Source: Globisporangium splendens (taxonomy: Eukaryota > Oomycota > Peronosporomycetes > Pythiales > Pythiaceae). Taken from it: 64,000 nt of DNA. Of this stretch, positions 8,491 through 33,764 are shown piece after piece. Numbering within the stretch: the stretch's first letter is position 1; each line of letters opens with the position of its first letter. Both the position numbers and the translations under genes were made by a program. The notes beneath the pieces are model-generated. The model was not told the DNA's origin and ran no database searches. It saw only the letters and a program-made list of their open reading frames with translations. Where the stretch lies: positions 148,540-212,539 of the forward strand of contig VFIW01000050.1 of NCBI GenBank assembly GCA_006386115.1. Reading direction: 5' to 3'.

Positions 8491-8535
8491 GTTGGTTGAG
8501 AAATTTGTCAAAATTTGGAGTGAAGTGCGCAAAGC

Positions 8536-12267: not shown

Positions 12268-12312
12268 GCTTTGCGCACTTCACTCCAAATTTTGACAAAT
12301 TTCTCAACCAAC

Positions 12313-12882
12313 ATGCGTGGTATCACTCAATTCAGCTGTGCGGTCTTGCTCGGGTGTCTTCTCGTTGGCCAAGTGCTGGCGAACTCGGCAACGGGCGAGC
12401 GTTTGCCAAAGGTGAGCATGAAAAGTATGGCCAAAGCCACTGCGGCAGACGATAAAGATCAAGCCACTCTCGCCGAAGCAATCGCCAAAACGAGTATCAT
12501 CGCAGCAAACAACACGATTCGCATCACGGACAGTCAGATCGCGCTCACGAGACGCGACCAGGCGCTTCTTCTCAAGAGCATTGCCGACGCCATCATCGCC
12601 GGACGCATGAGCTTGAATCCCGATCCTACTGTCACGGATGGCACCGACGATACTAGGGACAAGGCAATCCTTTCAGACCTGCGACCTGGGTCAAAGGCAG
12701 CAGCAGTGCTACCTATGCCACGGGATGCGTTCCTGTACTACGTCACGGATCCGAAAAGCCGCGCCATGACTGCGCGCATGAGCTGGCGCTACCCACTCGC
12801 GGACTGGAAGCTGTACGGCGTGCTTCTTGCGCCGACGGCGTGCGAAGTCAAGCGCACCATTGGCACTTACTTCTACTGCTGA
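12313..12882 (+). CDS. Small secreted protein, unknown function (right copy)
   Basis: Identical in product to the gene at 7921-8490: 189 residues with an N-terminal signal peptide and a Tyr/Arg-rich C-terminus ending in Cys. It follows the 493-residue secreted-protein gene in the same orientation, 358 bases downstream, and has its own core-promoter-like site. The start at 12313 was chosen over one at 12214, since the upstream extension would precede the promoter motif and bury the signal peptide. The role is unknown; secretion is inferred from the leader. Confidence 0.78.
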   Translation: MRGITQFSCAVLLGCLLVGQVLANSATGERLPKVSMKSMAKATAADDKDQATLAEAIAKTSIIAANNTIRITDSQIALTRRDQALLLKSIADAIIAGRMSLNPDPTVTDGTDDTRDKAILSDLRPGSKAAAVLPMPRDAFLYYVTDPKSRAMTARMSWRYPLADWKLYGVLLAPTACEVKRTIGTYFYC

Positions 12883-13195
12883 GTAGCAATATGGGGCCAC
12901 CAATCAACGTTGGAGTGAGTGTGCCTTTATGGAATGCACATGCGCTTAAAACTGTTGACGCCCATAACAAAAAAATCAACAGAGAATGGATGTTTGGAGC
13001 TCATGAAGCTCTGTTGGATGGAATTTGACCCTTTTATGCATGTTGTACCCATTTTTTTGCTTTGAAAAGTGTATCGATGAAGCCAAAGATAAAAATGCTC
13101 TACCATCTTGGTGGTACGCCATGTTGCGTCCGTTTCAACTCAATCATTATCTATTTCTCATCGCGCATTCGCTCCCGTTCGAGACGGAGTATAAC

Positions 13196-16044: not shown

Positions 16045-17193
16045 CTACTCGACGGTACGTGATGGAACACTTGGTATCTTGCCAGCGTCCTTTTGATCTC
16101 TAGGGTTTGCACCAACATCGTTGTTGGTAGCACTCGAAGAAAAGCAAGCCAAAGATGATGGGGCGCGCGAGTTAAACTTCGGGGATGTAAGAGCTGGAGT
16201 CACCAAATCGAACGGCCAACGAGATGGAGCGTCGAAAGAATCAACATTTGATGTCATGTGGATCCTTCGAGTTTGTAGTACGTTTGGCAAACTTGCACTC
16301 GGAGTCGTGACAGCGCCTCTTTCATAAAGCGCTGATGGCTTGGGTACTGGTGAAGTTGGAGCTGGGAATGCGAACCTGAAAAGCGGGAAGGACAACGAGG
16401 GAGATCCAAAAGGAGAGACATCTCTGGACGAGCTCGTCGAATCGTACCCCTCTCCCGCACTTGAAGTGGACCGTGCACCCGTGCTTGACGTTGTGGGGGA
16501 GCCAAAAAGCGACGATCCATTCGACGAGTTGGACGGCGACCGAGTGCTTCTACCAAAAGCGATGCGACTCGTATCAAAATCAAAAAGCTCAAACTGGCAA
16601 CGTCGAGACTCCGTGTCAGGTCGTGCAGCGACTGCAGTTGGTTGCTGATATTCGTCGGACTTGGGCATGACACAATTCTCGCGCGATGTGAAGCTGGCAC
16701 AAGAGGCACCCATAGGTGAATGCTGCAAAGGCGAGACGGCCATTCCAAATTCGGAGCAGCGGCTGACAGCGCTCACATCCATGTTCTGCATGCTCAGCAA
16801 TCCGTTTTTTGGTCTATTTGCGCTTGCATCACTGGTGCATGCTTCAACATGCGCACTCCTGTCGTGTGAATAAGCTGACACTCCGCTCATTGACTGCGAC
16901 CTTGTCGCTTCTTCCAAATGACTTTGCACGGTAGGATGGAGAACGCTTGTGGCTTGTCTCAAGTTCAAAACAAACCTGAAGTGGTGTCGGCTGCAACAAA
17001 CAAAACCAAAAACAACAAAGCAGAGCGCTTGGCCGACCAAAAGCAAACCTAGTGCCACGCTTGAGACTTCGCTGAAGGCACTCGCGCATGTGAGATGATA
17101 CAAAATAACGAAGCTTCTTGCTATTTTCAGATTCTGAAATGAAGCTTGATGATCAAGACTCTGGTGCATTGCTTCATAGCACACGAACGCCAT
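16045..17193 (-). CDS. Ser-rich protein with one hydrophobic segment, unknown
   Basis: From the first ATG in frame (17193) this gives 382 residues. A hydrophobic stretch near residues 40-70, ending in paired Cys, could be a membrane segment; the remainder is Ser/Thr/Pro-rich and probably disordered. The frame is open upstream to 17283, and a strong 5' splice donor (GTAAGT, 17287-17282) lies just before it, so the first exon may be further upstream (about 17300-17410) with an intron across this region. Bases 16644-17193 are in the 1803-bp inverted duplication and have a broken partner at 26996-27553. Only this copy has the full C-terminal half. I do not recognise the family. Confidence 0.45.
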   Translation of the reverse strand: MAFVCYEAMHQSLDHQASFQNLKIARSFVILYHLTCASAFSEVSSVALGLLLVGQALCFVVFGFVCCSRHHFRFVLNLRQATSVLHPTVQSHLEEATRSQSMSGVSAYSHDRSAHVEACTSDASANRPKNGLLSMQNMDVSAVSRCSEFGMAVSPLQHSPMGASCASFTSRENCVMPKSDEYQQPTAVAARPDTESRRCQFELFDFDTSRIAFGRSTRSPSNSSNGSSLFGSPTTSSTGARSTSSAGEGYDSTSSSRDVSPFGSPSLSFPLFRFAFPAPTSPVPKPSALYERGAVTTPSASLPNVLQTRRIHMTSNVDSFDAPSRWPFDLVTPALTSPKFNSRAPSSLACFSSSATNNDVGANPRDQKDAGKIPSVPSRTVE

Positions 17194-18446
17194 AAAACGT
17201 AACAATCTTCCTTTGCCATGCTCGCTCCAGGGCGTAGAACTGGCATCAAGTTTCTGCCATGGTCGCTTTTTGTAATGGAGCACTTACCTCAAAAATGTAA
17301 ACTTGAAGCTGCAGTAAATGTCTTCGGCATTGCAGACAGTAACTCGTCTACTGGAGAGCGGAACTGCAACCAAGTTGTTGATCAATGCTGCAGGAGCCTC
17401 ACATGACAGACTCGTCGCTTGATCGTGATGCACGATCGATTTCCTTCGCCGTCAATGGACTTTACGCTGCCTCTGGGAGACAATTTTGCATCTTGAGGTA
17501 ATCCTCGTACCGCAGCTGCTCGGGGGACTTGTTTCGATACGCTGGCATGGCACAGATCGAATGATATTTGACCGTACGGTATTCTCCTCCATATGTGTCG
17601 ATGCCCTCGAACACACAGAAACGTGGATATCCCGTTCCGAAAGTTGGCGCATGGTTCTGGAATAACTCGTCAGCACCAAAGTCGCCACTTGGTGCTGGGG
17701 AAGGACCGAAGCCAAACCCATTCGATATAGGCGGCATCACCGGCAGCACCGGCGGCGGCCACAAAATGCCAAACAATGTCGGACTTGTACTCGATGTCGA
17801 TTCACCGCTGCTTTGATCAAACAGAGCAAACGACGTTGCCGTCCCCGCGTTCTTCCTCTTGGTGGAATAGTCTTCGCAGCGCAATTCCTCGGGCGATTTA
17901 CTCGCGTAAGCCGGCATCGCACAGATCGAGACGTAGTACCGTGTGATGCCGTCCAAAACCGCAGTCGCTGGGTCTTCTGCAGTCCTCACGAACGGCGGGC
18001 TCCCCGTTCCAAGCGTCGTCGTGGCTGGGACTGGAGACCAGCGCTCTGCGGCAGCATGTCGACTTGTCGCTGGATTTGCTGGTCCAGCTAGAGTCCAATT
18101 ATTGAAGCCACTGGCACTAGCTGAGACTGGGAATGCGCTGTCAGTGCTCATGTTAACTTCAACACTCGAAGACATTGACGGGGACTTGTCAAATTGGCTG
18201 GGAAGCTGCTGCTGTGACGTCGACGCACTCGGTTCGTTTGCCGTGAAGAGAGCAGCACTGGGGATGGCGACAGGACCAGAGAAGCCAAGTGGGTTGCTGC
18301 TTCTGTCGGTGCTGCTGGGGGTATGCGGCGGTGTGCGAATGAAGCGGCTGTGGTGCGTTCTCCTTGCGAGTGCGCGCTTGCTTGTCCTACCGTGGATCAG
18401 TTCTTGGGTTCAAAAATGCAGGAAAACAACATATTTGCATTTATAG
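16644..18446 (-). repeat. Left arm of 1803-bp inverted duplication
   Basis: Reverse complement of 25743-27545, with equal length (1803 bases), scattered substitutions and no net indel. It contains the 237-residue GLEBS-like gene and the 5' part of its downstream neighbour. The arms are 7.3 kb apart and flank the protease, zinc-finger and phosphatase genes. Confidence 0.9.
17462..18175 (-). CDS. Small FG-containing protein with two GLEBS-like motifs (copy 1)
   Basis: The 237-residue product has two copies of a motif of the form AMPAYxxKSPE(E/Q)LRxEDY, around residues 85-103 and 207-225. This fits the GLEBS sequence by which Nup98-type nucleoporins bind Rae1/Gle2 and by which BubR1/Bub1 bind Bub3. 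The intervening Ser/Pro/Gly-rich region has several FG dipeptides and looks disordered. There is no Nup98 autoproteolytic domain and the protein is far too short to be Nup98. The frame is open upstream of the chosen ATG without another ATG for about 75 codons, so an upstream exon is possible. Binding to Rae1/Bub3-like WD40 proteins is inferred from the motif alone. Confidence 0.7.
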   Translation of the reverse strand: MSSSVEVNMSTDSAFPVSASASGFNNWTLAGPANPATSRHAAAERWSPVPATTTLGTGSPPFVRTAEDPATAVLDGITRYYVSICAMPAYASKSPEELRCEDYSTKRKNAGTATSFALFDQSSGESTSSTSPTLFGILWPPPVLPVMPPISNGFGFGPSPAPSGDFGADELFQNHAPTFGTGYPRFCVFEGIDTYGGEYRTVKYHSICAMPAYRNKSPEQLRYEDYLKMQNCLPEAA

Positions 18447-19150
18447 ACTGTATGTTTATTATAATTTCATGAACAGGTTACACCAAAGTACAGTGACAGT
18501 GACGTTGTTGCGATGAACACTCTCACAAAACAGAAACTGCACAAAAGTTGAAACTCAGGCTAAATATGCAATTGGCGAGGTTCGCTGAAAGTGGCGGTCG
18601 TATTAATTCTCACTGGTCGGAGCGAAAGTTGAAGTATTAGAAGAGTGTTTGTGATCACTTATTTGAGGGTATGAGTTGAAAGAGAGCATAGTAGCAGATT
18701 GAAGCATCGCTGACAAAAGAAAAAAAAAGAGAGAGAAAAGCACGATGCATTTGGACCAGGCACACAAGCTATAATTGTCATCAAGTGACACATTGCGACC
18801 TTCCAGACGCAGCACTGATCCAAATAGGCGAAAGAAACGATCGATTACTCTGTGCGAAGTCGACTGGAAGCGTGCTGGGCGATTTGCTCAAAGCATGGAA
18901 CCGCAGAATCCCAACATATCTTTCCAGGACCTGCACGCGCATTTTCCACCAATCACGAAGCTCCACCTTGACCCATCTCCACACGTCGCAAACACGCAAA
19001 CACGTCACCCAACACGCCAAAACGTATTTTCCGCGAATCAAACCACTTCAGTTCACAATTTCATCCAATCATATGCAAAATGAATTTGGTCTCTGAATTT
19101 GCTGCCCCTTTTCGTCACACAGTGTAACCGTGCCGGACAGGGTTACGTCC
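18447..19150. other. Intergenic, no gene supported
   Basis: AT-rich sequence between two divergently transcribed genes. A purine run at 18717-18740 is the only notable feature. Short overlapping ORFs on both strands show no protein-like composition. Confidence 0.45.
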
Positions 19151-19151
19151 C

Positions 19152-19165
19152 TCACCTTCCCAAAA
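19152..19165 (+). promoter_or_regulatory. Possible Inr/FPR core promoter
   Basis: TCACCTTCCCAAAA resembles the oomycete Inr/FPR consensus with a few mismatches and lies 52 bases upstream of the protease ATG. Confidence 0.4.
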
Positions 19166-19217
19166 GTCCCATCCGCAGCCACAACGAACGAGGAGCTCCA
19201 TACGACAAGCAATCGCC

Positions 19218-20930
19218 ATGGCGCTCGGATGGCGGCGCAGTACACGGCGCGGTGGTGTGTGGACGCTGGTGGCGCTGATGGCACTGAGTGCGACATCGCG
19301 GTCCGTGCTCACGAGCAGCGGGCGGCGTGTGACGACGACGACGTGTGGCGTCAGCGCGACGCGCGACGCACACATCCAAGCGGCGCGCAATGAGGACGCG
19401 TTCGCCACGCGCGATGAGGAGAGCAGGAGTCTACGAATATTAGAAGAAGAATTGCCAGTAGCAGACAGCGACGAGGACGCAGAGGAAGAAGGAGACGATG
19501 TGCAGACGAGCGGTGCGCTGGCGAAGGACCTGGTGCGCATCGAGCTCGAGAACTACGACCAGATGCAGTTTTATGGAACGTTGCATGTGGGCACGCCGCC
19601 GCAGCCGTTCCGCGTGATCTTTGACACGGGCTCGAGCGACATCTGGGTGCCGAGTGAGTCCTGCCGCGCGTGCTCGGGAATTCGACGGTACCATTCGCAT
19701 CGCTCGCGATCGTATGGTATGACGGGTGAGCGCTTCGACGTGCACTACGGCAGCGGCAGGGTTGTGGGCGACGTGATGCACGAGACCATCCACTTGGGCC
19801 AGGGACTCGAGATCCCCCATGTGCGCGTTGGGAATGCAGACAGCCAGGGTGCTGAGATCCAGCGGTTCCAGACCGAGGGCATCGTCGGCCTCGGTCTCGA
19901 CTCGCTCGCGCGCGTGACCAAGCCGAGTTTGTTCCATTTGCTGTCGCAGAACCCCGATTACGACCTCCCGATGGTGTTTTCTCTGTACATCAGCCCGCTG
20001 CCGTCGCACGATCCGCCGTCGCAGCTCATCTTTGGCGGCGTCGACGACACGCTCGCGGGCGAGAACGCGACGTGGTTCCATTTCCCCGTGATCCAGGACC
20101 GTTTCATGAGCTCGTACGGGTTCTGGTCGCTGCATCTGCAGGACGCGTTTATCGGTAACAGAAGATTGGCATCTACGCCACCAAGCACGCGGCCTCAGCA
20201 GCGTGGCCACTTGCATCGCGCGAACGACGTCGCGATCGTCGACTCCGGGACGTCGCTGATCCTGTTGCCGCTTGCGGCGTTCGAGACGGCAGTCGAGGTC
20301 ATGCGCAAGCACATCGGCGATCGGTTCCGAAACACGTCGCTGCGCAGCGGTGGGTACTCGTGCCAGCATTGTGCCCACGAGGACTTTCCAGATCTCGTGT
20401 TTGAGTTTGCGCTGGAGAATGAAAGCACGAACGACGACGATGACCTGTTTGTTGTCAAGACGCAGCAGTTTGTGCTCCAGGGTCAGGATTACGTGCGCTG
20501 CGAGCACCGCGTGTGCACACCGCAGATGGACGCGTCGAGCTCGGAGCTCTTTGTGCTCGGCGATGTGTTCTTACGCACGTACTACACGAGCTTCGACTAC
20601 ACGAATAAGCAGATCGGGTTTGCGTGTCCCCTGGGCAAGTGCTCGGGTGGCCAGAAGCCCGCGCTGCTGCTCAACACGGGCTTCGCGCAGCTCACGTACC
20701 TGAGTCACCTCTATTTCGGCACGTGCGGCTTCCTGGCATTCGTGTTTGTGAGCGTCTGGCTGATGTTAAAGCTCCAGACATGGTGGCGCCTGGCAAGACA
20801 GCGGCGGGTTCGCCATGGCAGCTTTCGGCATCTTCACAGCAGCGTTGCTAGCTCCAAGGACCCTGAGGGAGCATGCCCCGACTCGCTGCCATCCAATATC
20901 GCCGTCTTTGTGCTCTCAAGCGATCACTAA
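19218..20930 (+). CDS. Pepsin-family (A1) aspartic protease with C-terminal membrane anchor
   Basis: The 570-residue product has the two catalytic motifs of family A1: DTGSS at residues 136-140 and DSGTS at 342-346, with the usual tyrosine flap region (HYGSG, about 176-180) between them. The N-terminus has a basic stretch then a hydrophobic segment (about 14-32), acting as a signal peptide or anchor. An acidic propeptide-like region covers about 60-100. After the protease fold a hydrophobic segment at about 497-518 is followed by a basic tail, so it should be a type I membrane protein of the secretory pathway or surface. Extra Cys pairs in the N-lobe and near 382-385 suggest disulfide-bonded insertions. 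Oomycetes are known to carry such anchored aspartic proteases; the substrate cannot be read from sequence. Confidence 0.93.
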   Translation: MALGWRRSTRRGGVWTLVALMALSATSRSVLTSSGRRVTTTTCGVSATRDAHIQAARNEDAFATRDEESRSLRILEEELPVADSDEDAEEEGDDVQTSGALAKDLVRIELENYDQMQFYGTLHVGTPPQPFRVIFDTGSSDIWVPSESCRACSGIRRYHSHRSRSYGMTGERFDVHYGSGRVVGDVMHETIHLGQGLEIPHVRVGNADSQGAEIQRFQTEGIVGLGLDSLARVTKPSLFHLLSQNPDYDLPMVFSLYISPLPSHDPPSQLIFGGVDDTLAGENATWFHFPVIQDRFMSSYGFWSLHLQDAFIGNRRLASTPPSTRPQQRGHLHRANDVAIVDSGTSLILLPLAAFETAVEVMRKHIGDRFRNTSLRSGGYSCQHCAHEDFPDLVFEFALENESTNDDDDLFVVKTQQFVLQGQDYVRCEHRVCTPQMDASSSELFVLGDVFLRTYYTSFDYTNKQIGFACPLGKCSGGQKPALLLNTGFAQLTYLSHLYFGTCGFLAFVFVSVWLMLKLQTWWRLARQRRVRHGSFRHLHSSVASSKDPEGACPDSLPSNIAVFVLSSDH

Positions 20931-21138
20931 TGGCATATGACTCAACAGCAGAGGTAGCAGTAGCAGACCGCAAAGAACAGAACAGAATAGAATTATTTAG
21001 TAAGAACCATCCCACACTTTCCACATTACGGACAGCGTATAATAACAGCAGCAGCATCCTTCATTTCGTTTGCCACGCGCAGCGCTTCTTCCTGCATTCT
21101 TTGTACATAATAGGAGGTCAGCCGGAAGGAGAGCCACC

Positions 21139-23169
21139 TCATTGAGACGCATTGTCCACCGAATCCTTGACCCAGATGCGCAAAGTGTCCAGCTGGAGCA
21201 TCGTCACACCGCCCTTGCCGTCCTCGGCAACCACAGCAGCTGCACCCACCGCCGCGGCCGCAGCCGACGTTGCCTGCACGGGCTGCCACTCGGTGATGAG
21301 CTCAATGTCCTTGCGATACCGCGTGAGCAGATCCGTGAGCAGCCGCACAAACTCGCTGCGTACGTGGGGCTCGATCTGCGAGATCTCGAGCGCGCGAGCT
21401 CGAAGCTCCTTCGTTTGCTTGCACTGCAGCAGATCGGCGATCCACGTGAGGCAAAAGCTGAATTTCTTGAGGTTCGCCTTGCAGATCCCGACGCGGAGCA
21501 GCTTCATGAGCTCACGCTCGCTCGCCAGTCGCGAGCACTTCGAGATCACGATCTCCTCGATGCGCTCAAACAGCGCGTCCTCGTTCTCCTTGCCGTGGAT
21601 GCCCTGGCCGTAGCACTTTTCGCACAACTCGTATTCCTTGTCTTCCATGAGGCGACAGATGCGGCAGACCCACTTGAAGCCCGTAATCGGACCGCGGCCA
21701 CACCCATCGCAGATCGAGTCGTCTTCCTCCAAGGACAGGCTCGTCGTTGTCAACTGCGGCTTGTGCCGGTTCAACCGGTCCATGACGCTACCGAACACTT
21801 TCTTGATCTTCCCATCCTTCACTGCTCCTCCAGATCCGAACGCAGTGCCGCCGCTGCGACGATCGCCGTCACCCAGGTCCGTGATCGAGAGTCCCGATAC
21901 GCCGCTGAACGGCGACGACAGCGACGTGAGCGTCATCGTTCTCGATGAGTCCGTGCTTGTGCTCGCCGTCGAGCCTCTCGTCGGCGTCATTGAGTATCGA
22001 CGACTCGCTGCTGCGGCAGCGCTGCCTGACGACGCACCAGCAGCGGCGCTACCAGTGAGTGGCTTGGAAATATATACGGCCTTGGTTGGATGCAGCTCGC
22101 GTGGCCCATGCGGGATCGGCACCACGTTGCGTTTCTCGCAGTCGATGCAGTCGAACAAGTGCGGCGGCTCGTCGTTCGCAACATCTGTGGAGCTTCTCAG
22201 CGCACTCGAGAACTCGGAGGAAGACGGCGAGGACAGCGGCAGCGCCGAGTTCGAAGACGACGACAGCGAGCGCATGATGTATGAAGGGGGCTTTGCAGTC
22301 GACGCTAGTGACGCAGCGGCTAAGGGCGATGCGCTCGCCGTCGCCATTGCCGTAGGCGACGATGAGGTGGTCTGGACAGGCTGTTTCATAGGTGCTGCTG
22401 CTGTCGCAACGGATGGAGCTGACGACGACACCGCCGCCGATGCTGCGCCAATCGGTTGACACACGATTCGGAAGTCCATCGTCTGCTTGGCGTACGTGCG
22501 CGAGAAACACTGGATCTGGAACCCCGGCGCGTGCTGCTTCTGGTTATCGAGCAGCACTGGCAGCAAATAGATCAGCAAAGTCTTGCTGAGCTCCTCGGAG
22601 ACATCGTCAAACACTTCCTCCCACTGCGTGGCCGCGAGCGCCTCGGCGAATCCGTCCGAGTTGGTGATGGCCGCAAGCATCGGCTTGAGCTTCTCGCGGT
22701 CCGCGAGCGAGAGCGTCTCCATGAGACCCACGGCCTGCTGCACGTTCTTGGCATTACTCGACGTCTTGCTCGTAGACACGATCTTGCTGCTGCCTTTCCA
22801 GAGCTGCCACGGCGCGTTCGCCTTGTCGGTCTCACTCCCAGCATCGCTATTACTGCCCCTAAGCGGCAATGGCAGCGCCGAGTCGTCCTCGTTCGGGTTG
22901 ACGCTCGCACTATCGTCGCGCAGCTCGTCCTTGGCGCCATTAACGCTGACGTCGCGCTGGTTGAGCTGCTGCAGGTACTTGTCCTTCCAGACGGCGACGG
23001 CGCTCTCGAGGTCCTCGAGGCGCTTCTGCATCACGCGGAACTGCTGGTCCTTGAGCTGGATGTAGTTCTCCTTGAGGCACAGGTCCTTCGTCAGCACGCT
23101 GTTCTCGTGCTGCAGCGTCTGCAGCTGCAGCTGGATCGCCGCAAAGTTGTGCTGCGCCATCGACGTCAT
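21139..23169 (-). CDS. Coiled-coil protein with ZZ-type zinc finger
   Basis: 676 residues. Residues about 5-75 form a Leu/Gln/Lys-rich coiled coil. A Ser/Ala-rich, probably disordered middle follows, holding an isolated Cys-x-x-Cys near residue 345. A ZZ-like finger lies around 480-520 with three Cys-x-x-Cys pairs in the order CDGC, CRIC, CEKC and a following His; the second His of the usual pair is not obvious. The C-terminal 130 residues are helical with an Ala-rich stretch near the end. ZZ fingers bind proteins or modified peptides. There is no catalytic domain. It is the only gene on this strand between the protease and the phosphatase. The exact function is unknown. Confidence 0.8.
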   Translation of the reverse strand: MTSMAQHNFAAIQLQLQTLQHENSVLTKDLCLKENYIQLKDQQFRVMQKRLEDLESAVAVWKDKYLQQLNQRDVSVNGAKDELRDDSASVNPNEDDSALPLPLRGSNSDAGSETDKANAPWQLWKGSSKIVSTSKTSSNAKNVQQAVGLMETLSLADREKLKPMLAAITNSDGFAEALAATQWEEVFDDVSEELSKTLLIYLLPVLLDNQKQHAPGFQIQCFSRTYAKQTMDFRIVCQPIGAASAAVSSSAPSVATAAAPMKQPVQTTSSSPTAMATASASPLAAASLASTAKPPSYIMRSLSSSSNSALPLSSPSSSEFSSALRSSTDVANDEPPHLFDCIDCEKRNVVPIPHGPRELHPTKAVYISKPLTGSAAAGASSGSAAAAASRRYSMTPTRGSTASTSTDSSRTMTLTSLSSPFSGVSGLSITDLGDGDRRSGGTAFGSGGAVKDGKIKKVFGSVMDRLNRHKPQLTTTSLSLEEDDSICDGCGRGPITGFKWVCRICRLMEDKEYELCEKCYGQGIHGKENEDALFERIEEIVISKCSRLASERELMKLLRVGICKANLKKFSFCLTWIADLLQCKQTKELRARALEISQIEPHVRSEFVRLLTDLLTRYRKDIELITEWQPVQATSAAAAAVGAAAVVAEDGKGGVTMLQLDTLRIWVKDSVDNASQ

Positions 23170-23765
23170 CGCCGATCGCTACAGGACGCTGTGTGTGTGC
23201 TGCCGTCGTCGACCACGAAGTGCACGAGGAAGATCGCCGGCCGTCGCCCTTCAAGTCGACGTGCGTTTGCTTGAGCTTGCAGGGGGAAATGCGAGTATTG
23301 CTGTCGAGTGTGTGTGTTTTGTGTTCAGTTGCTATAGACGGGGGAGGAGGCGATTAGGAATCAGAATATAAAGATATAGGTTATTTTTAGATTGGGGAAG
23401 AATGGGAGTGCTTTATGTGCGATGTCCTGAAATGACTTCAGTATTAATTTGGGCAGGCGATTCGAAACAGAAGACAGTGACGGGCTTTAACAGTATTTTT
23501 GGCCAATGGCAGGGGAATCGTTATTGTAATAAAGTTGGATTGGATGAAAAACAACCACAGTGCAAATTTATATATAGGGTATATTAATTATACAATTTCA
23601 TAGATACCCTATCAATGTGTTCCCAGTACTTACCCTACTGCCAATATACATTCAGTATTGACTATTGTCACTCAAACAATTACAAACAAATTGTTTCTTT
23701 TTTCTCTTTCAAACATGCATCAACAGATCTCGGACAGACAGACAACTTTGAATCGCACCATGCGC
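23170..23765. other. Intergenic, AT-rich
   Basis: 5' flank of the ZZ gene and 3' flank of the phosphatase gene. Strongly AT-rich between 23350 and 23750, with no ORF or motif that I can support. Confidence 0.5.
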
Positions 23766-24980
23766 TTAGTACCGACGCACGAACGTGATCTCGTCGATCT
23801 CCTGGCCCGTGCTGTTGAACACGTGGTACGTGACCGCCATCGTCTTGTTCACGACGTCGACATCGTAGAGCGCGTAGCCGTACTTCTTCGCGTAAAAGAT
23901 CACGTCGGCTTTGGTGCCTGGACGCACTTCGCCCTCCTTGATATTGCGGCCGCCGCCGCCAAACATAAAGTAGTCCTTGCCGCCAGCGCGCATGTATTGC
24001 ATGTCATGCTCATGGCCGCCGAAGTGAGCCTTCACCTGGGGCGTCGACTGGATGAGCTGGTTGTACGCGACCACGCTCGAGTCGGTGTTGTCGCCACGGC
24101 CGCCAGCCGAGTAGATGTGGTGGTGGCCGGCCGAGAGGACGAACTTGGCGGTCGGATCGTTGAACTCGTGCGTGATCCACGGCGCGTCGTTCGTCCAGTT
24201 CAGCGTCATCGTGTCCGCGATCACGAACTTGAGCTTCTCGCCCGTGTTCACGCGCGCGTCCACGCTGTAGTACTTGCTCGGCATGATCCAGTACTTGGAG
24301 CCGGGGTCACCGCTGAGACCGTACTCGATTTGCGCGTCGATCTTGCCGTAGTGGTCGTGGTTGCCGAGAAACGAGATCCACGGCAGCGTCAGCTCGGTGC
24401 CGACGCGGAAGCGATCGAACCACGTGGTCTTCCACAGGCTGTCGGTCACGTTTTGTACGCCGTTGTCGTAAAAGTTGTCTCCAGCCGAGAGAATGAAGTC
24501 GTAGTTGCCGGTCTTTGCGTCTCGCAAGACGCCATCACGCACCGCGAGCACGCCGAGACTCTCAGTGGTCTCACCCCAGTCACCCAGACCGATGAAGCGG
24601 ATGTGACCCGAGTCACAACGCAGCTTGACCAAGTGGTCGTTTGGGATTTCGAGGCTGCAGCGCTTCGCAGGTCGGGATGGACCCTGTTGATCAGGGTTGC
24701 CCTGTTGCTGGGATGGGTTGCTCGAGGTCGTCGCAGCAAGATTCTTGAGCTGAGCCGCTGCCGCGTACTCCAGGAGCGCCTCCTCCACTTCAGCGAGTGT
24801 GTTGAGGTTCGAATTCTCGGTTGGCGCAGGAGTGGGGCTCGCACTGAGGATACTGCTTTGTCGAGGCTCCGAGAAGGCGACCGGCGCAGTGGCAGTGTCG
24901 ACCTGCCGCAACATATCGGCAGACGCCAGCGTGGCCACGCCAAGCAGCAAGGCGCTAACGAGGGACTTCGTGCCGAGCAT
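23766..24980 (-). CDS. Secreted purple acid phosphatase (TRAP-type metallophosphoesterase)
   Basis: 404 residues from the ATG at 24980, chosen because it opens a signal peptide (MLGTKSLVSALLLG and on). All five metal-binding blocks of purple acid phosphatases are present in order: GDWG (about 131), GDNFYDNG (about 168), GNHDHYG (about 207), AGHHH (about 286) and GGHEHD (about 319). These bind a di-iron type centre that hydrolyses phosphate monoesters at acid pH. The length and single-domain layout match the small, mammalian/TRAP-like class. A Ser/Thr/Gln-rich region (about 35-105) lies between leader and catalytic domain. A role in extracellular or vacuolar phosphate release is inferred from the family. 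Confidence 0.93.
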   Translation of the reverse strand: MLGTKSLVSALLLGVATLASADMLRQVDTATAPVAFSEPRQSSILSASPTPAPTENSNLNTLAEVEEALLEYAAAAQLKNLAATTSSNPSQQQGNPDQQGPSRPAKRCSLEIPNDHLVKLRCDSGHIRFIGLGDWGETTESLGVLAVRDGVLRDAKTGNYDFILSAGDNFYDNGVQNVTDSLWKTTWFDRFRVGTELTLPWISFLGNHDHYGKIDAQIEYGLSGDPGSKYWIMPSKYYSVDARVNTGEKLKFVIADTMTLNWTNDAPWITHEFNDPTAKFVLSAGHHHIYSAGGRGDNTDSSVVAYNQLIQSTPQVKAHFGGHEHDMQYMRAGGKDYFMFGGGGRNIKEGEVRPGTKADVIFYAKKYGYALYDVDVVNKTMAVTYHVFNSTGQEIDEITFVRRY

Positions 24981-25742
24981 AGCTGTGGAAGGGGATACTT
25001 TATCGAGCTCAGGCTTTTGCGGCGTGTGAAGCGAAGAGAGCGAGTTCGAGACTGACGCCTCTTTTTGGCGGTCCAGCGGCCTGGGCTCGAGACAAGAGGG
25101 CGAGCAGGTCTCTTGGTGTATTCGCTCGTGCATGTAGTGTCCGTGGGCACCACAAGTAGCGCGTGATAAAGTTGAAGTCATAGTTGCACTGCCATGGGCA
25201 GAGATTCTGAGGTCCTCCCACCGCCACGCTGCAGAGAACCTGTGACAGTGGGTGCTGAATCAGATGGACAGAAGATTCAGCAGAGGATGATTAGCAACGT
25301 GGTCTCGCACATGGAATGGAATCTTCTCGCGAGGCAGCAAGATTCGATCTGATGGCCTGCATGTAGGCGTCAATTGACGCCAATTGGACCCACAGAACGC
25401 TCGAGTACAGCTTGTTGTCCGAGGCACGACACCTGGGAGTCAAGTCAAACGATAAAGGCTAGCTTAATGCTACTCGCATGGGATGCATAAAGCTGTGCAT
25501 TGATGATCGGCATGCAGGTGGTCCTCGTAATTTGCAAGCAAAGCTGGTTTGGTGTGTTCATCGTTAAACGCGCAGAATTGCGTCAAAACCAATCTTGCGG
25601 TCGAAGGAAGAGATATTAATGGGGTGATTCATTGCTGCTGGGGTTGCACTTGCGTGGTTCGTCGAAATTCATCGAGGCTCATCACAAAAACCTCCACGAA
25701 AACTATCGGAGCCTATTTATGCAATTGCATAAACCTCATACA
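24981..25742. other. Intergenic
   Basis: Region between the divergent phosphatase gene and the right arm of the 1803-bp duplication. Reading upstream from the phosphatase start stays open to 25181 but lacks the signal peptide context. A palindrome-like ATGCAATTGCAT string lies at 25719-25730. Confidence 0.45.
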
Positions 25743-27545
25743 CTATAAATGTAAATATGTTGTTTTCCTGCATTTTTGAACCCAAGAACTGATCCACGGT
25801 AGGACAAGCAAGCGCGCACTCGCAAGGAGAACGCACCACAGCCGCTTCATTCGCACACCGCCGCATACCCCCAGCAGCACCGACAGAAGCAGCAACCCAC
25901 TTGGCTTCTCTGGTCCTGTCGCCATCCCCAGTGCTGCTCTCTTCACGGCAAACGAACCGAGTGCGTCGACGTCACAGCAGCAGCTTCCCAGCCAATTTGA
26001 CAAGTCCCCGTCAATGCCTTCGAGTGTTGAAGTTAACATGAGCACTGACAGCGCATTCCCAGTCTCAGCTAGTGCCAGTGGCTTCAATAATTGGACTCTA
26101 GCCGGACCAGCAAATCCAGCGACAAGTCGACATGCTGCCGCAGAGCGCTGGTCTCCAGTCCCAGCCACGACGACGCTTGGAACGGGGAGCCCGCCGTTCG
26201 TGAGGACTGCAGAAGACCCAGCGAGTGCGATTTTGGACGGCATCACACGGTACTACGTCTCGATCTGTGCGATGCCGGCTTACGCGAGCAAATCGCCCGA
26301 GGAATTGCGCTGCGAAGACTATTCCACCAAGAGGAAGAACGCGGGGACGGCAACGTCGTTTGCTCTGTTTGATCAAAGCAGCGGTGAATCGACATCGAGT
26401 ACAAGTCCGACATTGTTTGGCACTCTGTGGCCGCCGCCGGTACTGCCGGTGATGCCGTCTATACCGAATGGGTTTGGCTTCGGTCCTTCCCCAGCACCAA
26501 GTGGCGACTTTGGTGCTGGCGAGCTATTCCAGAACCATGCGCCAACTTTCGGAACGGGATATCCACGTTTCTGTGTGTTCGAGGGCATCGACACATATGG
26601 AGGAGAATACCGTACGGTCAAATATCATTCGATCTGTGCCATGCCAGCGTATCGAAACAAGTCCCCCGAGCAGCTGCGGTACGAGGATTACCTCAAGATG
26701 CAAAATTGTCTCCTAGAGGCAGCGTAAAGTCCATTGACGGCGAAGGAAATCGATCGTGCATCACGATCAAGCGACGAGTCTGTCATGTGAGGCTCCTGCA
26801 GCATTGATCAACAACTTGGTTGCAGTTCCGCTCTCCAGTAGACGAGTTACTGTCTGCAATGCCGAAGACATTTACTGCAGCTTCAAGTTTACATTTTTGA
26901 GGTAAGTGCTCCATTACAAAAAGCGACCATGGCAGAAACTTGATGCCAGTTCTACGCCCTGGAGCGAGCATGGCAAAGGAAGATTGTTACGTTTTATGGC
27001 GTTCGTGTGCTATGAAGCAATGCGCTAGAGTCTTGATCATCAAGCTTCATTTCAGAATCTGAAAATATCAAGAAGCTTCGTTATTTTGTATCATCTCACA
27101 TGCGCGAGTGCCTTCAGCGGAGTCTCAAGCGTGGCACTAGGTTTGCTTTTGGTCGGCCAAGCGCTCTGCTTTGTTGTTTTTGGTTTTGTTTGTTGCAGCC
27201 GACACCACTTCAGGTTTGTTTTGAACTTGAGACAAGCCACAAGCGTTCTCCATCCTACCGTGCAAAGTCATTTGGAAGAAGCGACAAGGTCGCAGTCAAT
27301 GAGCGGAGTGTCAGCTTATTCACACGACAGGAGTGCGCATGTTGAAGCATGCACCAGTGATGCAAGCGCAAATAGACCAAAAAACGGATTGCTGAGCATG
27401 CAGAACATGGATGTGAGCGCTGTCAGCCGCTGCTCCGAATTTGGAATGGCCGTCTCGCCTTTGCAGCATTCACCTATGGGTGTCTCTTGTGCCAGCTTCA
27501 CATCGCGCGAGAATTGTGTCATGCCCAAGTCCGACGAACATCAGC
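25743..27545 (+). repeat. Right arm of 1803-bp inverted duplication
   Basis: Reverse complement of 16644-18446 with the same length and a low level of substitution. The arm ends exactly where the downstream gene loses its C-terminal half, so the left arm is the likely source of that part. Confidence 0.9.
26014..26727 (+). CDS. Small FG-containing protein with two GLEBS-like motifs (copy 2)
   Basis: 237 residues, differing from copy 1 at eight positions (Ser2Pro, a Thr-Ser and Val-Ile pair before the first motif, and Ile-Thr, Pro-Ser, Ser-Pro, Asp-Gly and Pro-Leu changes later). Both GLEBS-like motifs are unchanged. As in copy 1 the frame is open upstream of the ATG without another ATG, across a protein-like Ser/Pro-rich stretch from about 25780, so an upstream exon or non-AUG start cannot be excluded. 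The third family member aligns from the Met nine codons downstream (26038), which is an alternative start. Function is inferred as for copy 1. Confidence 0.7.
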   Translation: MPSSVEVNMSTDSAFPVSASASGFNNWTLAGPANPATSRHAAAERWSPVPATTTLGTGSPPFVRTAEDPASAILDGITRYYVSICAMPAYASKSPEELRCEDYSTKRKNAGTATSFALFDQSSGESTSSTSPTLFGTLWPPPVLPVMPSIPNGFGFGPSPAPSGDFGAGELFQNHAPTFGTGYPRFCVFEGIDTYGGEYRTVKYHSICAMPAYRNKSPEQLRYEDYLKMQNCLLEAA

Positions 27546-27553
27546 TTTCATAG
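26996..27553 (+). pseudogene. Truncated copy of the Ser-rich gene at 16045-17193
   Basis: Duplicate of the 5' half of the minus-strand Ser-rich gene. It has an in-frame TAG at 27026-27028 (codon 11) and leaves the duplication at 27545, after which it reads only two more residues before a stop. The C-terminal half present in the left copy is absent. Confidence 0.7.
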
Positions 27554-28116
27554 AGAGAGAGAGAAGCTTTTATCATCCCGAACACAAACTCACGAAACGC
27601 ACTTTGACTTGGCAACTCCAGGTCCTAGGTCACCCAAAATGCATTCTCGTACGCTGTTGCCATCGGTTGATGTATTTACCAGAGATCAGAGTGTTGGTGA
27701 GATAATTTGCTTGAGTACCTTTGAATAGCGAAAGGAAACAGAGCACAGAACTTGCAAGTAGTAGATCCCGTTTCCAGCGAAGCTGAGAGCTGTTGCTCAA
27801 AAATTGAGCAGTGCAAACGAAAAGGCAACTGATTCCCGTTGAGTGATGGTTCTTTTGGAACCAAGAGTGAAGGTGCCACCGATGGGTATCAAACCTTGCT
27901 AGGCAATTTTTAACTTGAATATTGTACAATCACACACCCAAAATATGCACCGACATATTGCAGCAATAAGATATGAAGGAATTTTAGCTGGCTCATTTCT
28001 CATTAGACTTTGAATTATGGAGGCTTTATCAGCTACGTTCTTCCGTTTGATATTGCTTTGCTTTCTCTTCGTTCGCCGTCATCGATAACCGAATGCCTCT
28101 CTGAGTCTCACGGCTC
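27554..28116. other. Intergenic
   Basis: 3' flanks of the truncated duplicate and of the convergent proteasome gene. A GA-rich run (GAGAGAGAGA, 27554-27563) marks the duplication edge. No gene supported. Confidence 0.5.
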
Positions 28117-28986
28117 CTAGTACGCTCGGTTGTGATCGTGAAGGTCAACGACGTCTTGGTGCGCCACGTGGCGGAATCCGTCAGGCTTGAAGATGTACAC
28201 GTTACAGATCCCACCACTGTAGGCATCGCGGTGCGTGGCATGATAGATCGCGTCTTTGCCGAGCTTCACGGCTTCGTCGTCGGTCAAATCCCAGCGCCAG
28301 TCGCTGTCCAAGACGCCGTACGCGTAGGTCGAGCCGGAACCGACCGAGAACTTGGGGACTTTGTCGCTTGCACGGAACCGTGAGCCTTCGTCGTCGATGT
28401 AGTACAGAGTCGGCTCGCCATTGTCATACCCCATGAGCATCATACCCAACGACATGCCGTACCGCTTGTAATAGTTGCACGTGTTGGCGATCAGCTTGGA
28501 CGCTGCACGCACCGAGATACGGTGGTGGTTCCGCAACTCGTACAGACGGCACTGGATCGCCAGATTGCGTTGCCAGTACTGGCAATCGGCGCCAGAGCCC
28601 GCCAGAGTTGCGAGCATATAATCGTTGATCGGGTTGACCTTCTTGGCTTGGCCCGAAGCCACAAACGAACCCATCGACGAACGCGAGTCGACAGCGACGA
28701 GAATGCCGCCGTTGTAGATAAACGCGAGCGTGGTCGTGCCTTTCTCGAACTTCAACGTCTGGTCGTTATCTTCGGTATACTTCACTTTGAAATGTGCACG
28801 GGAGTACTCAGCTGGATCGGCCACGGGCGGCAAGAGAAAGCCGCTCTCAAGCGCATTAGGCATGGCAGCCGTCGTGATATTCTGCTGCATTGGCATGTGC
28901 ATATTGGGCATCGCGCCACCGTAACTCATCGTGTTGCCGCGGCTTCCGGAGCGCAGGAAATCCAGCTTGAGCACAGGCGCGCTCAT
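28117..28986 (-). CDS. PSMB5: 20S proteasome subunit beta type-5 (chymotrypsin-like)
   Basis: 289 residues, typical of a beta-5 precursor with an N-terminal propeptide. The mature N-terminus is the Thr after Gly83 in KGTTTLAF, the nucleophile of the chymotrypsin-like site. The matching Asp17 and Lys33 are at residues 100 and 116 of the precursor (VAVDSR and AKKVNP). The S1-pocket region, the GSGSTYAYGVLD block and the C-terminal AYSGG-x-x-N-x-Y block fit beta-5. It works in the 20S core in cytosol and nucleus. A weak Inr-like TCATTTAGCGTT lies about 50 bases upstream of the ATG. No intron is needed. Confidence 0.95.
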   Translation of the reverse strand: MSAPVLKLDFLRSGSRGNTMSYGGAMPNMHMPMQQNITTAAMPNALESGFLLPPVADPAEYSRAHFKVKYTEDNDQTLKFEKGTTTLAFIYNGGILVAVDSRSSMGSFVASGQAKKVNPINDYMLATLAGSGADCQYWQRNLAIQCRLYELRNHHRISVRAASKLIANTCNYYKRYGMSLGMMLMGYDNGEPTLYYIDDEGSRFRASDKVPKFSVGSGSTYAYGVLDSDWRWDLTDDEAVKLGKDAIYHATHRDAYSGGICNVYIFKPDGFRHVAHQDVVDLHDHNRAY

Positions 28987-30102
28987 GTCTATAACAGGCT
29001 TTCCGTTGCTTCTTCACGCAGAGTAAACAACGCTAAATGAAAGGCTGTCTTTGCTAAGCAAGAAAGGATATCTTCATCGTTGCTTGAAGTAGAAGTACCA
29101 AGGTAGCTCGGATCACGACACCGGGTTCGGCTAGGTGCGATTTCGATCACGACACCAGTACCTTCAACTAAGGTTGTTGGCAATAGATTGCCGATTAAAG
29201 CGGAGGCATATTGCACCGTTTGATGCGCAAATCGATTTGTTTGTCAGCAGAGCTGAAAGCGTCCGTGTTTCGGCTTCGTGGTCGATGAGTTGTCCATCCA
29301 GATCAATAATGTTGATGGACACAATTAATTGCACCATATGAATTCCTTGTTTGCATAACTATATTGTGATACACCCATCTTCACGTGACTGGCTCGGATT
29401 ACAACGTAATATAAAACCTGAAACCCGATGAAACCCATCAGCACATCCTTCACGCTGCAGCGTTTAAAGAGATGCAGTAGTCATGCGAGCTCTTTCCATG
29501 GCTCTCACACTGATGAGCACATGTAGATGCACTACATCAACTTCCGCTGTCACCAAACATTGCTATGCGTCGTGTGTAGACGCTCAGTGGACTTCCAAGC
29601 TTGGATCGTCGATTTCGCTCGTCCTACTGCGATCAACACACCTCACCAACCGCTCATGATATTGGTGTTAGCGGCTACAGAAGGATAAAGGCGAAGGATT
29701 CAAACAATTGACGACATCCGAGTAAAAATGCAACAATATTGAAAAATGCTGACCTTATTGTTGAACCTTGACATTTGTCATCCCATTCTCACATTTGGCG
29801 TTTTTTCTTTGTGAACCTGCTGTCGTACTTCCTAGTTTTGTAATTTACGAAGTGGGAACTAGACTTTCTGTAAATACCTGAACATTGCCATTTTGTACCC
29901 ACATCCGTTCCAGAAAGTAGACTTTCTGCCGAGCAAGATCGATTTTTTTACCAGGTCGTTTTCTATCAGTGCCGCTGTCTCCCGTTCAAGGTCTCGCTGG
30001 CACAACCAGCAAGCGATCCGAGTGCAGCAGTCGCTTCCCAGCAGCAGCATAAGCGCAGGCAACGATGAGCTCTAGTCAGTCCCTTCCGGTGTTGTTATTC
30101 GA
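28987..30102. other. Intergenic, with decayed 5' remains of GLEBS gene family
   Basis: Mostly featureless. From about 29940 the plus strand has weak similarity (Ser/Gln-rich reading) to the region upstream of the GLEBS-like genes at 25780-26010, suggesting that the third copy was once a longer duplication. Confidence 0.4.
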
Positions 30103-30963
30103 ATGAACACCAGCAGTGCATCCCCAGTCTCGACCAATACCAGTGGTTTGCACAGAGGCACATTTGAAGGATGAGCGGAAACTGCAAAGCACTGGTATCT
30201 AGCGCGTACAGCGATTGGAACAGGGAATCCGCCGTATGCGAGGACTCCGAAAGAAGATGGTGTGAGTGATGCTCTCGACAGAGCACGCTACTACGTCTCG
30301 ATCTGTGCGATGCCGGCATACGCGAGCAAGTCGCCCGAGGAATTGCGATGCGAAGACTATTTCGTGCGTGATGGCATCCACCATAGTCGCACTGGGACTT
30401 TGTGTTTTAGCCCACTTGCTTTAGCGTCGTCTAAAACATCGGATTGTCGTACCAGCGAATCGACATCAAGTCTTCCAGCAATTGTATGGTCGCTGCCAAC
30501 ACCACCAGCTTTGTCCAATGGTTTTCGCTTCAGTACGTCCCCAACACCAAGGGGCGAAGTTTTCAGCAGTGAGCTATTCAAGAACCATGCGCCTTTCGGA
30601 ACGGGGAATCCGCGTTTCTGCGTATTCGAAGCTACTGAAGGATTTGGTACGGTCAAGTACCATTCAATTTGTGCCATGCCAGCGTATGGAAGCAAGTCTC
30701 TGGAGCAGCTGCGATACGAGGACTACCTCAGGATGCAAAACTGCCTGCCCTCGAGCGACGCGATGCCATCGAGGTGCACGGCGACGACTCCATTGTTGTT
30801 TGGAGTCGCTCCACCTTCGTCCAGGGCTGACGCAGCATCCAGTCCTAGCATCTTCGGTGGTTTTGATCTTGAAGGAAGAGTTGCAGTGCAGCCTGTCGCG
30901 CAGGGTCTGTTCGAGTTTCAGTCTGTGCCCAAGATAGATGGTGATGATGCCCGCTGGACGTAG
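30103..30963 (+). pseudogene. Third GLEBS-like family member, interrupted by one TGA
   Basis: An ATG at 30103 aligns with the internal Met of copies 1 and 2. The reading then follows the family but meets a TGA at 30172-30174 (codon 24). Beyond it the frame is open to 30963 and includes both motifs: AMPAYASKSPEELRCEDY (identical to the other copies) and AMPAYGSKSLEQLRYEDY. The C-terminus is longer than in copies 1 and 2 and ends in a different Ser/Ala-rich tail. Elsewhere it has diverged strongly. The single stop may be a real inactivation, or the protein may start further in, or the base may be miscalled. Conservation of the motifs argues for function until recently. Confidence 0.6.
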
Positions 30964-32838: not shown

Positions 32839-33636
32839 TTAAAACAGACACTCGAAGAGGTGGTGCAGGTCTTGGTCCGAAAGCACACCACCCGAGGCGG
32901 TCGTGACCTTGTGGTGGATCAACTTTGGGAGCTGGGTCTGATTTAGAGGCTGCGATGGAAACTGGCTGCGTGGGTGGAAGTGATGCGCATGGATCGTTCC
33001 ACTAGGGATAAACACCCCAGACGTCGCAGGAGCCTCGCGGAGGTACTCTTTACTCGGCGGTTCAATCGACGAGGTGGCAGGGAATGAAGATGTAGTCGGG
33101 CTGTTGTTATTCGCGTGGCTCTGCTGACGTCCATAGCGACGGAGCGTGTTTGCCAACCCGTGCTGCGTCTTCATGTGGCGCGTCAAGTTGCCTGCCGTGC
33201 TGAACGTCTTGCCACAGCCAGGCAACACGCAACTGTGCACCGCGCTACCAGCATGCACCTTCTGGTGCTTCGCCAACATCTCCTGACTCGTAAAGATGCG
33301 CGTGCAGCCGGCAACCGGACACTCCATCTTGTGCAACGCATGCAATCGTTTGTGACGAGCCAAGTTTCCCGACGTGCTAAAACGCTTGCCGCACGACTTG
33401 ATCGGACACTGGTGGGGTTGCTCGCCCGTGTGGGTCTTCATGTGCTCATGGAGCGTGAACTTGCGGTGGAAGCGTCCGCCGCAGTTGGCAAACGGGCATA
33501 CAAACGGACGGTCTTGGCTTGGATCTTGGACACGATAGCTATGGTGGCTGTGTCCTCGAACTTGCTGCTGTTCATACTGGAGCGGAAGTTCATGGTGGAA
33601 CAGTTCAGGAAGCGGCGTGGCGATCGAAGAGGTCAT
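32839..33636 (-). CDS. C2H2 zinc-finger protein, four fingers (paralogue A)
   Basis: 265 residues from the ATG at 33636. Four tandem C2H2 fingers cover about residues 42-165; finger 1 is Cys-x4-Cys, and the others follow with a TGEQP linker after finger 1. This arrangement suggests sequence-specific DNA binding in the nucleus, perhaps as a transcription factor. The N-terminus is Ser/Pro/His-rich, the C-terminus Ser/Thr/Pro/His-rich and ends in DLHHLFECLF. A reading further upstream (to 34143) is ignored because a good core promoter sits at 33748-33764. The finger region is almost identical at DNA level to paralogues B and C, while the flanks have diverged. Confidence 0.85.
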   Translation of the reverse strand: MTSSIATPLPELFHHELPLQYEQQQVRGHSHHSYRVQDPSQDRPFVCPFANCGGRFHRKFTLHEHMKTHTGEQPHQCPIKSCGKRFSTSGNLARHKRLHALHKMECPVAGCTRIFTSQEMLAKHQKVHAGSAVHSCVLPGCGKTFSTAGNLTRHMKTQHGLANTLRRYGRQQSHANNNSPTTSSFPATSSIEPPSKEYLREAPATSGVFIPSGTIHAHHFHPRSQFPSQPLNQTQLPKLIHHKVTTASGGVLSDQDLHHLFECLF

Positions 33637-33747
33637 CTTAGTAGATGGGTACTCGAGACAGTGGCTTGTGGGGAGTTCGAGCAGATTCGATAGTGTGGAA
33701 GCAAGAGGAGGAGTTGTCTGTGGCAACTCTGCGTTCTCGGGGTGACG

Positions 33748-33764
33748 CTTTTGAAAAAGTGAGC
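33748..33764 (-). promoter_or_regulatory. Inr/FPR-type core promoter, paralogue A
   Basis: On the minus strand GCTCACTTTTTCAAAAG, 112 bases upstream of the ATG at 33636 and equivalent to sites before paralogues B and C. Confidence 0.6.

What the first reader, a model, noticed from the sequence alone, without database searches (positions are those of the whole stretch)
17462..30963. A family of short proteins with two GLEBS-like motifs each
Seen: three local genes encode proteins of about 230-290 residues with a motif AMPAYxxKSPE(E/Q)LRxEDY twice, about 120 residues apart, in a disordered FG-containing background. Known: GLEBS motifs of Nup98, Bub1 and BubR1 bind the WD40 proteins Rae1/Gle2 and Bub3. 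A normal Nup98 has one GLEBS in a much larger protein. Inference: these are free-standing double ligands that could titrate or cross-link Rae1/Bub3, affecting mRNA export or the spindle checkpoint, in the pathogen or possibly in a host.
Basis: partly seen in the sequence, partly recalled or inferred. Interest (0 to 1): 0.75.

Follow-up and report, generated by a model that had tools for sequence, protein, structure and literature searches.

The report
Short double-GLEBS proteins in Globisporangium
A plant-pathogenic water mould carries three neighbouring genes for small, apparently unstructured proteins that each hold two copies of the nuclear-pore motif known to grip the mRNA-export factor Rae1, apart from its ordinary nuclear-pore protein Nup98; what they do is not yet tested.

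Summary
Three ORFs of a Globisporangium splendens window each encode two Nup98-type GLEBS segments (PF21240, E about 1e-12). Two lie in a 98% inverted duplication, and a second contig, read as the other haplotype, carries the same arrangement. They are not pieces of Nup98, which lies on another contig with one GLEBS, a dense FG domain and an autopeptidase. The GLEBS segments change less than the rest (omega about 0.19 against 0.6-0.7). G. ultimum has a double-motif relative.

Rae1 is the likelier partner: the motif is Nup98-type and the genome's Rae1 keeps both key arginines. GLEBS1 keeps the EE pair; GLEBS2 is EQ in all copies seen and scores just below the Pfam cut-off alone in two of the three genes, so two equal ligands are doubtful. 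Nothing supports a host target. The third copy lacks an in-frame start before GLEBS1.

Best reading: a Nup98-derived free-standing GLEBS family acting inside the oomycete as Rae1 adaptor or competitor. Binding and expression are inferred. New variant of a known kind.

The parts
17462..18175 (-). Double-GLEBS gene, copy 1 (237 aa from the ATG; Met9 is the first Met shared with the other contig)
   Evidence: two PF21240 stretches
17867..18010 (-). GLEBS1 of copy 1 (EE pair intact)
   Evidence: 25 of 49 positions identical to this species' Nup98 GLEBS
17498..17638 (-). GLEBS2 of copy 1 (EQ instead of EE)
   Evidence: 24 of 48 identical to this species' Nup98 GLEBS; 26.2 bits alone, cut-off 27
26014..26727 (+). 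Double-GLEBS gene, copy 2 (237 aa; agrees with GenBank FI667_g10668 from this Met on)
26179..26322 (+). GLEBS1 of copy 2 (EE)
26551..26691 (+). GLEBS2 of copy 2 (EQ)
   Evidence: 26.2 bits alone
30175..30963 (+). Diverged third copy: 262-codon open frame, no in-frame Met before GLEBS1; needs an upstream exon or is 5'-degenerate
30217..30360 (+). GLEBS1 of copy 3 (EE)
30598..30726 (+). GLEBS2 of copy 3 (EQ)
16644..18477 (-). Left arm of a 1834-nt inverted duplication holding copy 1
   Evidence: 98% complementary to the right arm
25712..27545 (+). Right arm of the inverted duplication, holding copy 2
   Evidence: both arms also present on contig C42

Best explanation
These genes are a small family derived from the FG/GLEBS part of Nup98. 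The protein has no autopeptidase anchor and few FG dipeptides, so it would be a mobile, disordered protein whose best conserved parts are two GLEBS segments. GLEBS1 (EE intact) most likely folds onto the top of the oomycete's own Rae1/Gle2 propeller as Nup98's GLEBS does; GLEBS2 (EQ) is probably a weaker or specialised second site. By holding Rae1 away from, or in addition to, Nup98 it would tune export of mRNA or pre-60S subunits. Shown here: GLEBS identity, separation from Nup98, the arrangement on two contigs, lower amino-acid divergence in the motifs, a relative with both motifs in G. ultimum, and a Rae1 locus with the matching arginines. Inferred: expression, Rae1 binding, nuclear role, effect on export.
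For: PF21240 with two stretches in 3 of 3 proteins; Nup98 GLEBS chains 4owr, 7byf, 3mmy, 7vpg rank first in PDB, E 0.0067-0.017. Each of 4 GLEBS segments tested resembles this species' Nup98 GLEBS above all of 1000 shuffles (z 10.5-14.7). Nup98 lies elsewhere (C132) with one GLEBS core and 71 FG in 736 aa. Against G. ultimum P0002 the like motifs are closer (GLEBS1 70%, GLEBS2 82%) than the unlike ones (59% and 53%). dN/dS copy 1 v copy 3: GLEBS 0.19, rest 0.59; Fisher p 0.004 on rounded counts, GLEBS1 core 0 amino-acid and 5 synonymous changes in 25 codons. The Rae1 locus on C34 keeps human R172 and R216, reported to salt-bridge with E201/E202 of Nup98 (PMC3783196, passages). The same passages: overexpressed Nup98 GLEBS mislocalises Rae1 and makes poly(A)+ RNA accumulate in the nucleus in HeLa cells, a precedent for a free GLEBS as competitor.
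Against: No binding, expression or localisation data. GLEBS2 is EQ in all copies seen, and in genes 1 and 2 it scores 25.7-26.2 bits alone on both contigs, below the cut-off of 27. In G. ultimum both motifs carry further changes (CVMLAY, CAIPVY) and Pfam counts one stretch only. The third copy has no in-frame start before GLEBS1. Between copies 1 and 2 dN/dS is about 0.5 on 13 differences. The low synonymous divergence of the GLEBS1 core would also fit past exchange between copies. A two-motif relative was found in one other named oomycete only; both profile searches were capped at 7,993 candidates. AlphaFold2 without a partner gives mean pLDDT 38, uninformative.
Confidence: 0.55

Rival explanations
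1. Leftovers: a duplicated Nup98-fragment family that is decaying and makes no functional protein.
For: Third copy has no in-frame start before GLEBS1 and one TGA in its alignment to copy 1 on both contigs; the first ATG of copies 1 and 2 is not conserved on the other contig; poor conservation outside the motifs.
Against: Open frames of 308-315 codons in 4 of 4 copies of genes 1 and 2 and of 262 codons in 2 of 2 copies of gene 3; GLEBS segments change less than the rest; both motifs recognisable in G. ultimum.
Confidence: 0.2
2. Spindle-checkpoint ligand: the motifs bind Bub3 rather than Rae1.
For: Rae1 and Bub3 are related propellers (family knowledge); the locus read as Bub3 keeps the Arg that corresponds to Rae1 R216.
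Against: The segments are Nup98-type over 43-48 residues; the Mad3/Bub1 locus shows a different site, SFEEVRAQVY (that it is this gene's Bub3-binding site is by eye and recall); the Bub3 locus has Lys at the R172 position.
Confidence: 0.07
3. Extra nuclear-pore component: an FG nucleoporin that adds Rae1 docking sites at the pore.
For: Relatives P0004, P0011 and P0022 have more FG (2.4-3.7 per 100 aa) and one GLEBS core; P0022 also hits Nucleoporin_FG, at 29.4 bits under its cut-off of 32.2.
Against: 1.5-2.1 FG per 100 aa in the window's proteins against 9.6 in this species' Nup98; no autopeptidase hit in the ORFs.
Confidence: 0.13
4. Host-directed effector that captures plant Rae1.
For: The organism is a plant pathogen (PMC7163027, read whole); Rae1 and Nup98 are targets of unrelated viral and bacterial proteins (titles and abstract starts in the listing).
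Against: ORF starts and the GenBank model's start show no hydrophobic signal-peptide-like stretch by eye; similarity is to the pathogen's own Nup98. No secretion predictor was run.
Confidence: 0.04

Closest known systems
Nup98 (Nup98-Nup96 precursor), GLEBS segment; yeast Nup116
   Same: GLEBS with GTGxPPY-like start and AMPxYxxKSxEELRxEDY-like core
   Different: Nup98 of this genome has one GLEBS core in a long FG domain and an autopeptidase domain; these have two GLEBS, few FG, no autopeptidase, 217-323 aa by ORF or GenBank model
Bub1/BubR1/Mad3 GLEBS
   Same: Short peptide that binds the top of a related propeller, with an EE pair (family knowledge; local site seen)
   Different: Sequence type differs; PF08311 is not found in the window's genes
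BuGZ/ZNF207 (recalled; a ZNF207 paper appears only in the listing)
   Same: A GLEBS in a protein other than Nup98
   Different: By recall it has zinc fingers, binds Bub3 and has a single GLEBS
Proteins P0005, P0006, P0007, P0010, P0016, P0021
   Same: Two or three GLEBS-like cores by pattern in one protein of 151-457 aa
   Different: All their cores are EE; Pfam counts two stretches only in P0007, and P0021 is below the cut-off; LRR_5 in P0010; source organism not shown except Schizophyllum commune for P0021; common descent of the architecture not tested

Membership tests
Nup98 (nucleoporin) | GLEBS (PF21240) segment | tested here: met
   3 of 3 proteins above cut-off
Nup98 (nucleoporin) | Long FG-repeat domain | tested here: not met
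   4-5 FG, 1.5-2.1 per 100 aa; Nup98 of the same genome 71 FG in 736 aa
Nup98 (nucleoporin) | C-terminal autopeptidase domain (PF04096) | tested here: not met
   Genome search with PF04096 gives 2 places, both on C132; no PF04096 hit in 3 of 3 proteins at E up to 1
GLEBS peptide that binds Rae1/Gle2 | EE pair facing two Arg of Rae1 | tested here: inconclusive
   GLEBS1 EE in 3 of 3 genes, GLEBS2 EQ in 3 of 3; both Arg present in this genome's Rae1 locus
GLEBS peptide that binds Rae1/Gle2 | Measured binding to Rae1 | not testable with these tools
   No complex prediction or assay
Bub1/BubR1/Mad3 | Mad3_BUB1_I domain (PF08311) in the same protein | tested here: not met
   Genome search: 1 of 4 places above cut-off, on C78; none on C144 or C42
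Secreted oomycete effector | N-terminal signal peptide | tested here: inconclusive
   None apparent by eye; start codon uncertain, no predictor available

The most novel reading that the evidence does not exclude
Eukaryotes repeatedly evolve free-standing multi-GLEBS proteins, detached from Nup98, as soluble multivalent Rae1 regulators; in Globisporangium the pair of motifs is a tuned one (one strong EE site, one weak EQ site) that bridges or sequesters Rae1 and gates mRNA export.
Probability: 0.15. Interest if true: 0.7.

Novelty: new variant of a known kind. Interest (0 to 1): 0.45.

Why it matters
Rae1 docking is usually described through one GLEBS in Nup98, and its inhibition through viral or bacterial proteins. 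A cell-encoded protein that is little more than two GLEBS segments would be an endogenous competitor or adaptor for Rae1, testable with peptides, and would show that GLEBS can be freed from the pore. The EE-to-EQ difference between the two motifs, seen in two species, gives a built-in comparison of binding strength.

Tried and rejected
Piece of Nup98: rejected, Nup98-Nup96 lies on C132 with its own GLEBS core and autopeptidase. Assembly artefact: the inverted pair and the third gene recur, collinear in blocks of 94.0-98.1% identity, on a second contig, C42, so the inverted duplication is taken as real. Phage or viral-contig origin: no match in the phage collection by tblastn, and none of 64 pattern matches in viral contigs encodes a relative. 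Structure: AlphaFold2 on the 8-row alignment A3 gave mean pLDDT 38.2, pTM 0.17; it placed short helices at both SPE(E/Q)LR sites and a strand pair in GLEBS2, all at low confidence, so no fold search was made. More family members: the second profile search (A2) listed only 3 proteins and missed P0004, which was in the query alignment and within the length range, so the candidate cap loses true members. PDB look-alikes below the Nup98 chains (beta-lactamase, rusticyanin; E 0.05-0.41) were taken as chance. In one search the row for the species' own Nup98 was computed on a segment cut too short; one search replaces it. Papers, listings unless said: 0 papers hold any of 'two GLEBS', 'GLEBS repeats', 'multiple GLEBS', 'double GLEBS', 'second GLEBS', 'GLEBS-containing proteins'. 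In the titles and abstract starts listed (30 of 78; 20 of 7,795; 20 of 29; 20 of 26; 1 of 1; PMC5204127, passages, on Bub1/BubR1; 9 of 9; 10 of 95) I saw none on free-standing multi-GLEBS or oomycete GLEBS proteins. The library lacks most subscription journals. PMC8790125 was seen in passages and not used for a claim.
Full report
What is there. The window is G000:C144:148540-212539 in an assembly of 53,310,241 bases and 195 contigs. A window protein is 97% identical to FI667_g10668 of Globisporangium splendens, which is listed on a contig of 572,562 bases, the length of C144, and the assembly size fits the published draft of strain rgcb-1 (53.3 Mb; PMC7163027, read whole). I take the window to be from that species. 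Three ORFs each encode two motifs. The pattern A[MI]PxYxxKSxE[EQ]LRxEDY occurs 6 times in the window and 0 times in 20 simulated windows. Pfam Nup98_GLEBS (PF21240) reaches 47.1, 47.0 and 46.3 bits in the three proteins against a cut-off of 27, with two stretches each. Searched motif by motif in the genome, GLEBS2 of genes 1 and 2 reaches only 25.7-26.2 bits on the two contigs, under the cut-off. phmmer of copy 1 against PDB chains ranks four Nup98 GLEBS chains first (4owr_B, 7byf_B, 3mmy_B, 7vpg_B; E 0.0067-0.017), all aligned at GLEBS1.

GLEBS over its length. Each segment begins GTGxPxF/Y and ends LRxEDY, as does the GLEBS of this species' own Nup98. Global alignment to that Nup98 segment gives 25 of 49, 24 of 48, 23 of 49 and 25 of 44 identical positions for the two motifs of copy 1 and of copy 3, z 10.5-14.7 and above all of 1000 shuffles.

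Not Nup98 pieces. PF04096 finds two places in the genome, both on C132. One belongs to a Nup98-Nup96 type frame (2100 codons open) with 71 FG in 736 residues and one GLEBS core. The other is a 779-aa paralogue with the autopeptidase, 6 FG and no GLEBS core by pattern. A genome search with PF21240 at E up to 10 gives 14 places: 12 are the motifs of the three genes on C144 and C42, one is Nup98 on C132, and one is a weak match on C128 (15 bits).

Arrangement and haplotypes. Copies 1 and 2 sit in a 1834-nt, 98% inverted duplication with 7234 nt between the arms. Contig C42 carries all three genes in the same order, reversed, in collinear blocks of 94.0-98.1% identity, inverted arms included. I read this as the other haplotype. 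The third gene's 789-nt open frame is identical on both contigs. The first ATG of copies 1 and 2 is Ile on C42; the next Met, residue 9, is shared by all four. The GenBank model's first exon lies outside the repeat (25319), and the same peptide was not found near copy 1 or in the C42 stretch held. The third gene has no Met before the one in GLEBS1 and one TGA in its alignment to copy 1 on both contigs. Whether it is spliced or decayed is open.

Selection. Between copy 1 and copy 3, dS is 0.89 and dN 0.36. In the GLEBS segments omega is 0.19, elsewhere 0.59; copy 2 against copy 3, and the C42 pair B1 against B3, give 0.20/0.68 and 0.19/0.67; these three comparisons are not independent. Treating the counted changes, rounded, as a 2x2 table gives Fisher p 0.004; the rest of the protein aligns poorly, which inflates its dN. 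The GLEBS1 core has 5 synonymous and 0 amino-acid codon changes in 25; its low synonymous divergence would also fit past exchange between copies. The GLEBS2 core has 10 synonymous and 4 amino-acid codon changes in 33. Copies 1 and 2 differ by 5 synonymous and 8 non-synonymous changes (omega about 0.5), too few to judge.

Relatives. One search (single sequence) listed 5 proteins at E up to 1, two of them (P0001, P0003) this genome's own. P0002 is from G. ultimum (187 aa; two cores by pattern; one Pfam stretch). Like motifs match better than unlike ones: copy 1 GLEBS1 to G. ultimum GLEBS1 70% and GLEBS2 to GLEBS2 82%, against 59% and 53% crosswise; within one protein the two motifs share 66% (copy 1) or 53% (copy 3, G. 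ultimum). This suggests that the second motif predates the split of the two species. P0004, P0011 and P0022 (organism not shown) hold one GLEBS core (P0004 under the Pfam cut-off), more FG, and a shared N-terminal stretch GRVxxxx(D/E)LFAxNAPS; a stretch like ELFxNHAP lies just before GLEBS2 in the window's proteins. A profile search listed 21 proteins at E up to 10. Thirteen of the 22 proteins fetched, with the three window proteins, were given to the core count; among them P0005, P0006, P0007, P0010, P0016 and P0021 show two or three GLEBS-like cores. Pfam counts two stretches only in P0007 of these six, and P0021 stays below the cut-off. P0005 breaks off inside its second core. Multi-GLEBS architecture may therefore recur, but the cores are short and common descent was not tested.

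The EQ change. One search lists 31 cores in 16 proteins; 26 are EE, and the 5 with EQ are the second motifs of copies 1-3, P0001 (the same as copy 2 there) and P0002. The C42 copies are EQ too. Of the nine proteins not given, eight show one EE core each, and P0003 is a part of copy 3. The two Glu are those reported to salt-bridge with R216 and R172 of human Rae1 (E201, E202); [quoted passage not shown] The effect of Gln at one of them is not stated in what I read, nor which Glu faces which Arg. The genome's Rae1 locus (C34, several exons) keeps Arg at both places; the locus read as Bub3 (C129) has Lys and Arg. The Mad3/Bub1 locus (C78) shows SFEEVRAQVY downstream of its PF08311 match; that this belongs to the same gene is inferred, as exons were not joined.

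How it most likely works. A disordered, unanchored protein whose best conserved parts are two GLEBS would bind Rae1 through GLEBS1 and perhaps more weakly through GLEBS2, competing with or adding to Nup98. A precedent for competition is that overexpressed Nup98 GLEBS mislocalises Rae1 and causes nuclear poly(A)+ RNA accumulation in HeLa cells (PMC3783196, passage). Binding, expression and localisation were not tested; disorder rests on composition and on an AlphaFold2 model of low confidence. A published survey describes canonical Nup98 as carrying an embedded GLEBS in the FG domain, with a median of 9 FG per 100 residues (PMC4283134, passages), which these proteins do not approach.

Novelty. 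GLEBS and its function are known; a small protein with two of them, apart from Nup98, I did not find described (listings, of which most were capped). The copy 2 gene is in GenBank as a hypothetical protein, and the protein collection tags it with PF21240, so the sequence is known and the architecture apparently unremarked.

Noticed in passing
window 7725-10034 and 10769-13078: A 2310-nt inverted repeat with 100% complementary arms and a 734-nt centre. The stretch of C42 fetched aligns collinearly with one arm only and holds a 178-nt inverted piece elsewhere; could be an assembly artefact or a palindrome of one haplotype.
   Followed up: partly
window 32839-34143, 35809-36651, 38135-38992 (-): Three C2H2 zinc-finger-like ORFs in a row sharing a 300-nt stretch at 97% identity (Pfam run on the third only).
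   Followed up: no
window 47221-48510 (-): ORF with a Crinkler N-terminal domain (PF20147, E 7.5e-8).
   Followed up: no
L023 3855-6200 (C132, + strand): Second Nup98-type gene, convergent with Nup98-Nup96: autopeptidase domain, 6 FG in 779 aa, no GLEBS core by pattern. The genome thus has an autopeptidase paralogue without GLEBS and a GLEBS family without autopeptidase.
   Followed up: partly
window 30175-30963 and C42: The third gene's open frame shows 0 differences in 789 nt between the two contigs, while the aligned block that holds it is 97.8% identical.
   Followed up: no
P0010: A 457-aa protein (organism not shown) with BspA-type leucine-rich repeats and two GLEBS-like cores near its C-terminus.
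   Followed up: no
P0016 and P0021: Proteins of 254 and 391 aa (P0021 from Schizophyllum commune) with three GLEBS-like cores each by pattern, the first of the SFEE(V/L)R type.
   Followed up: no
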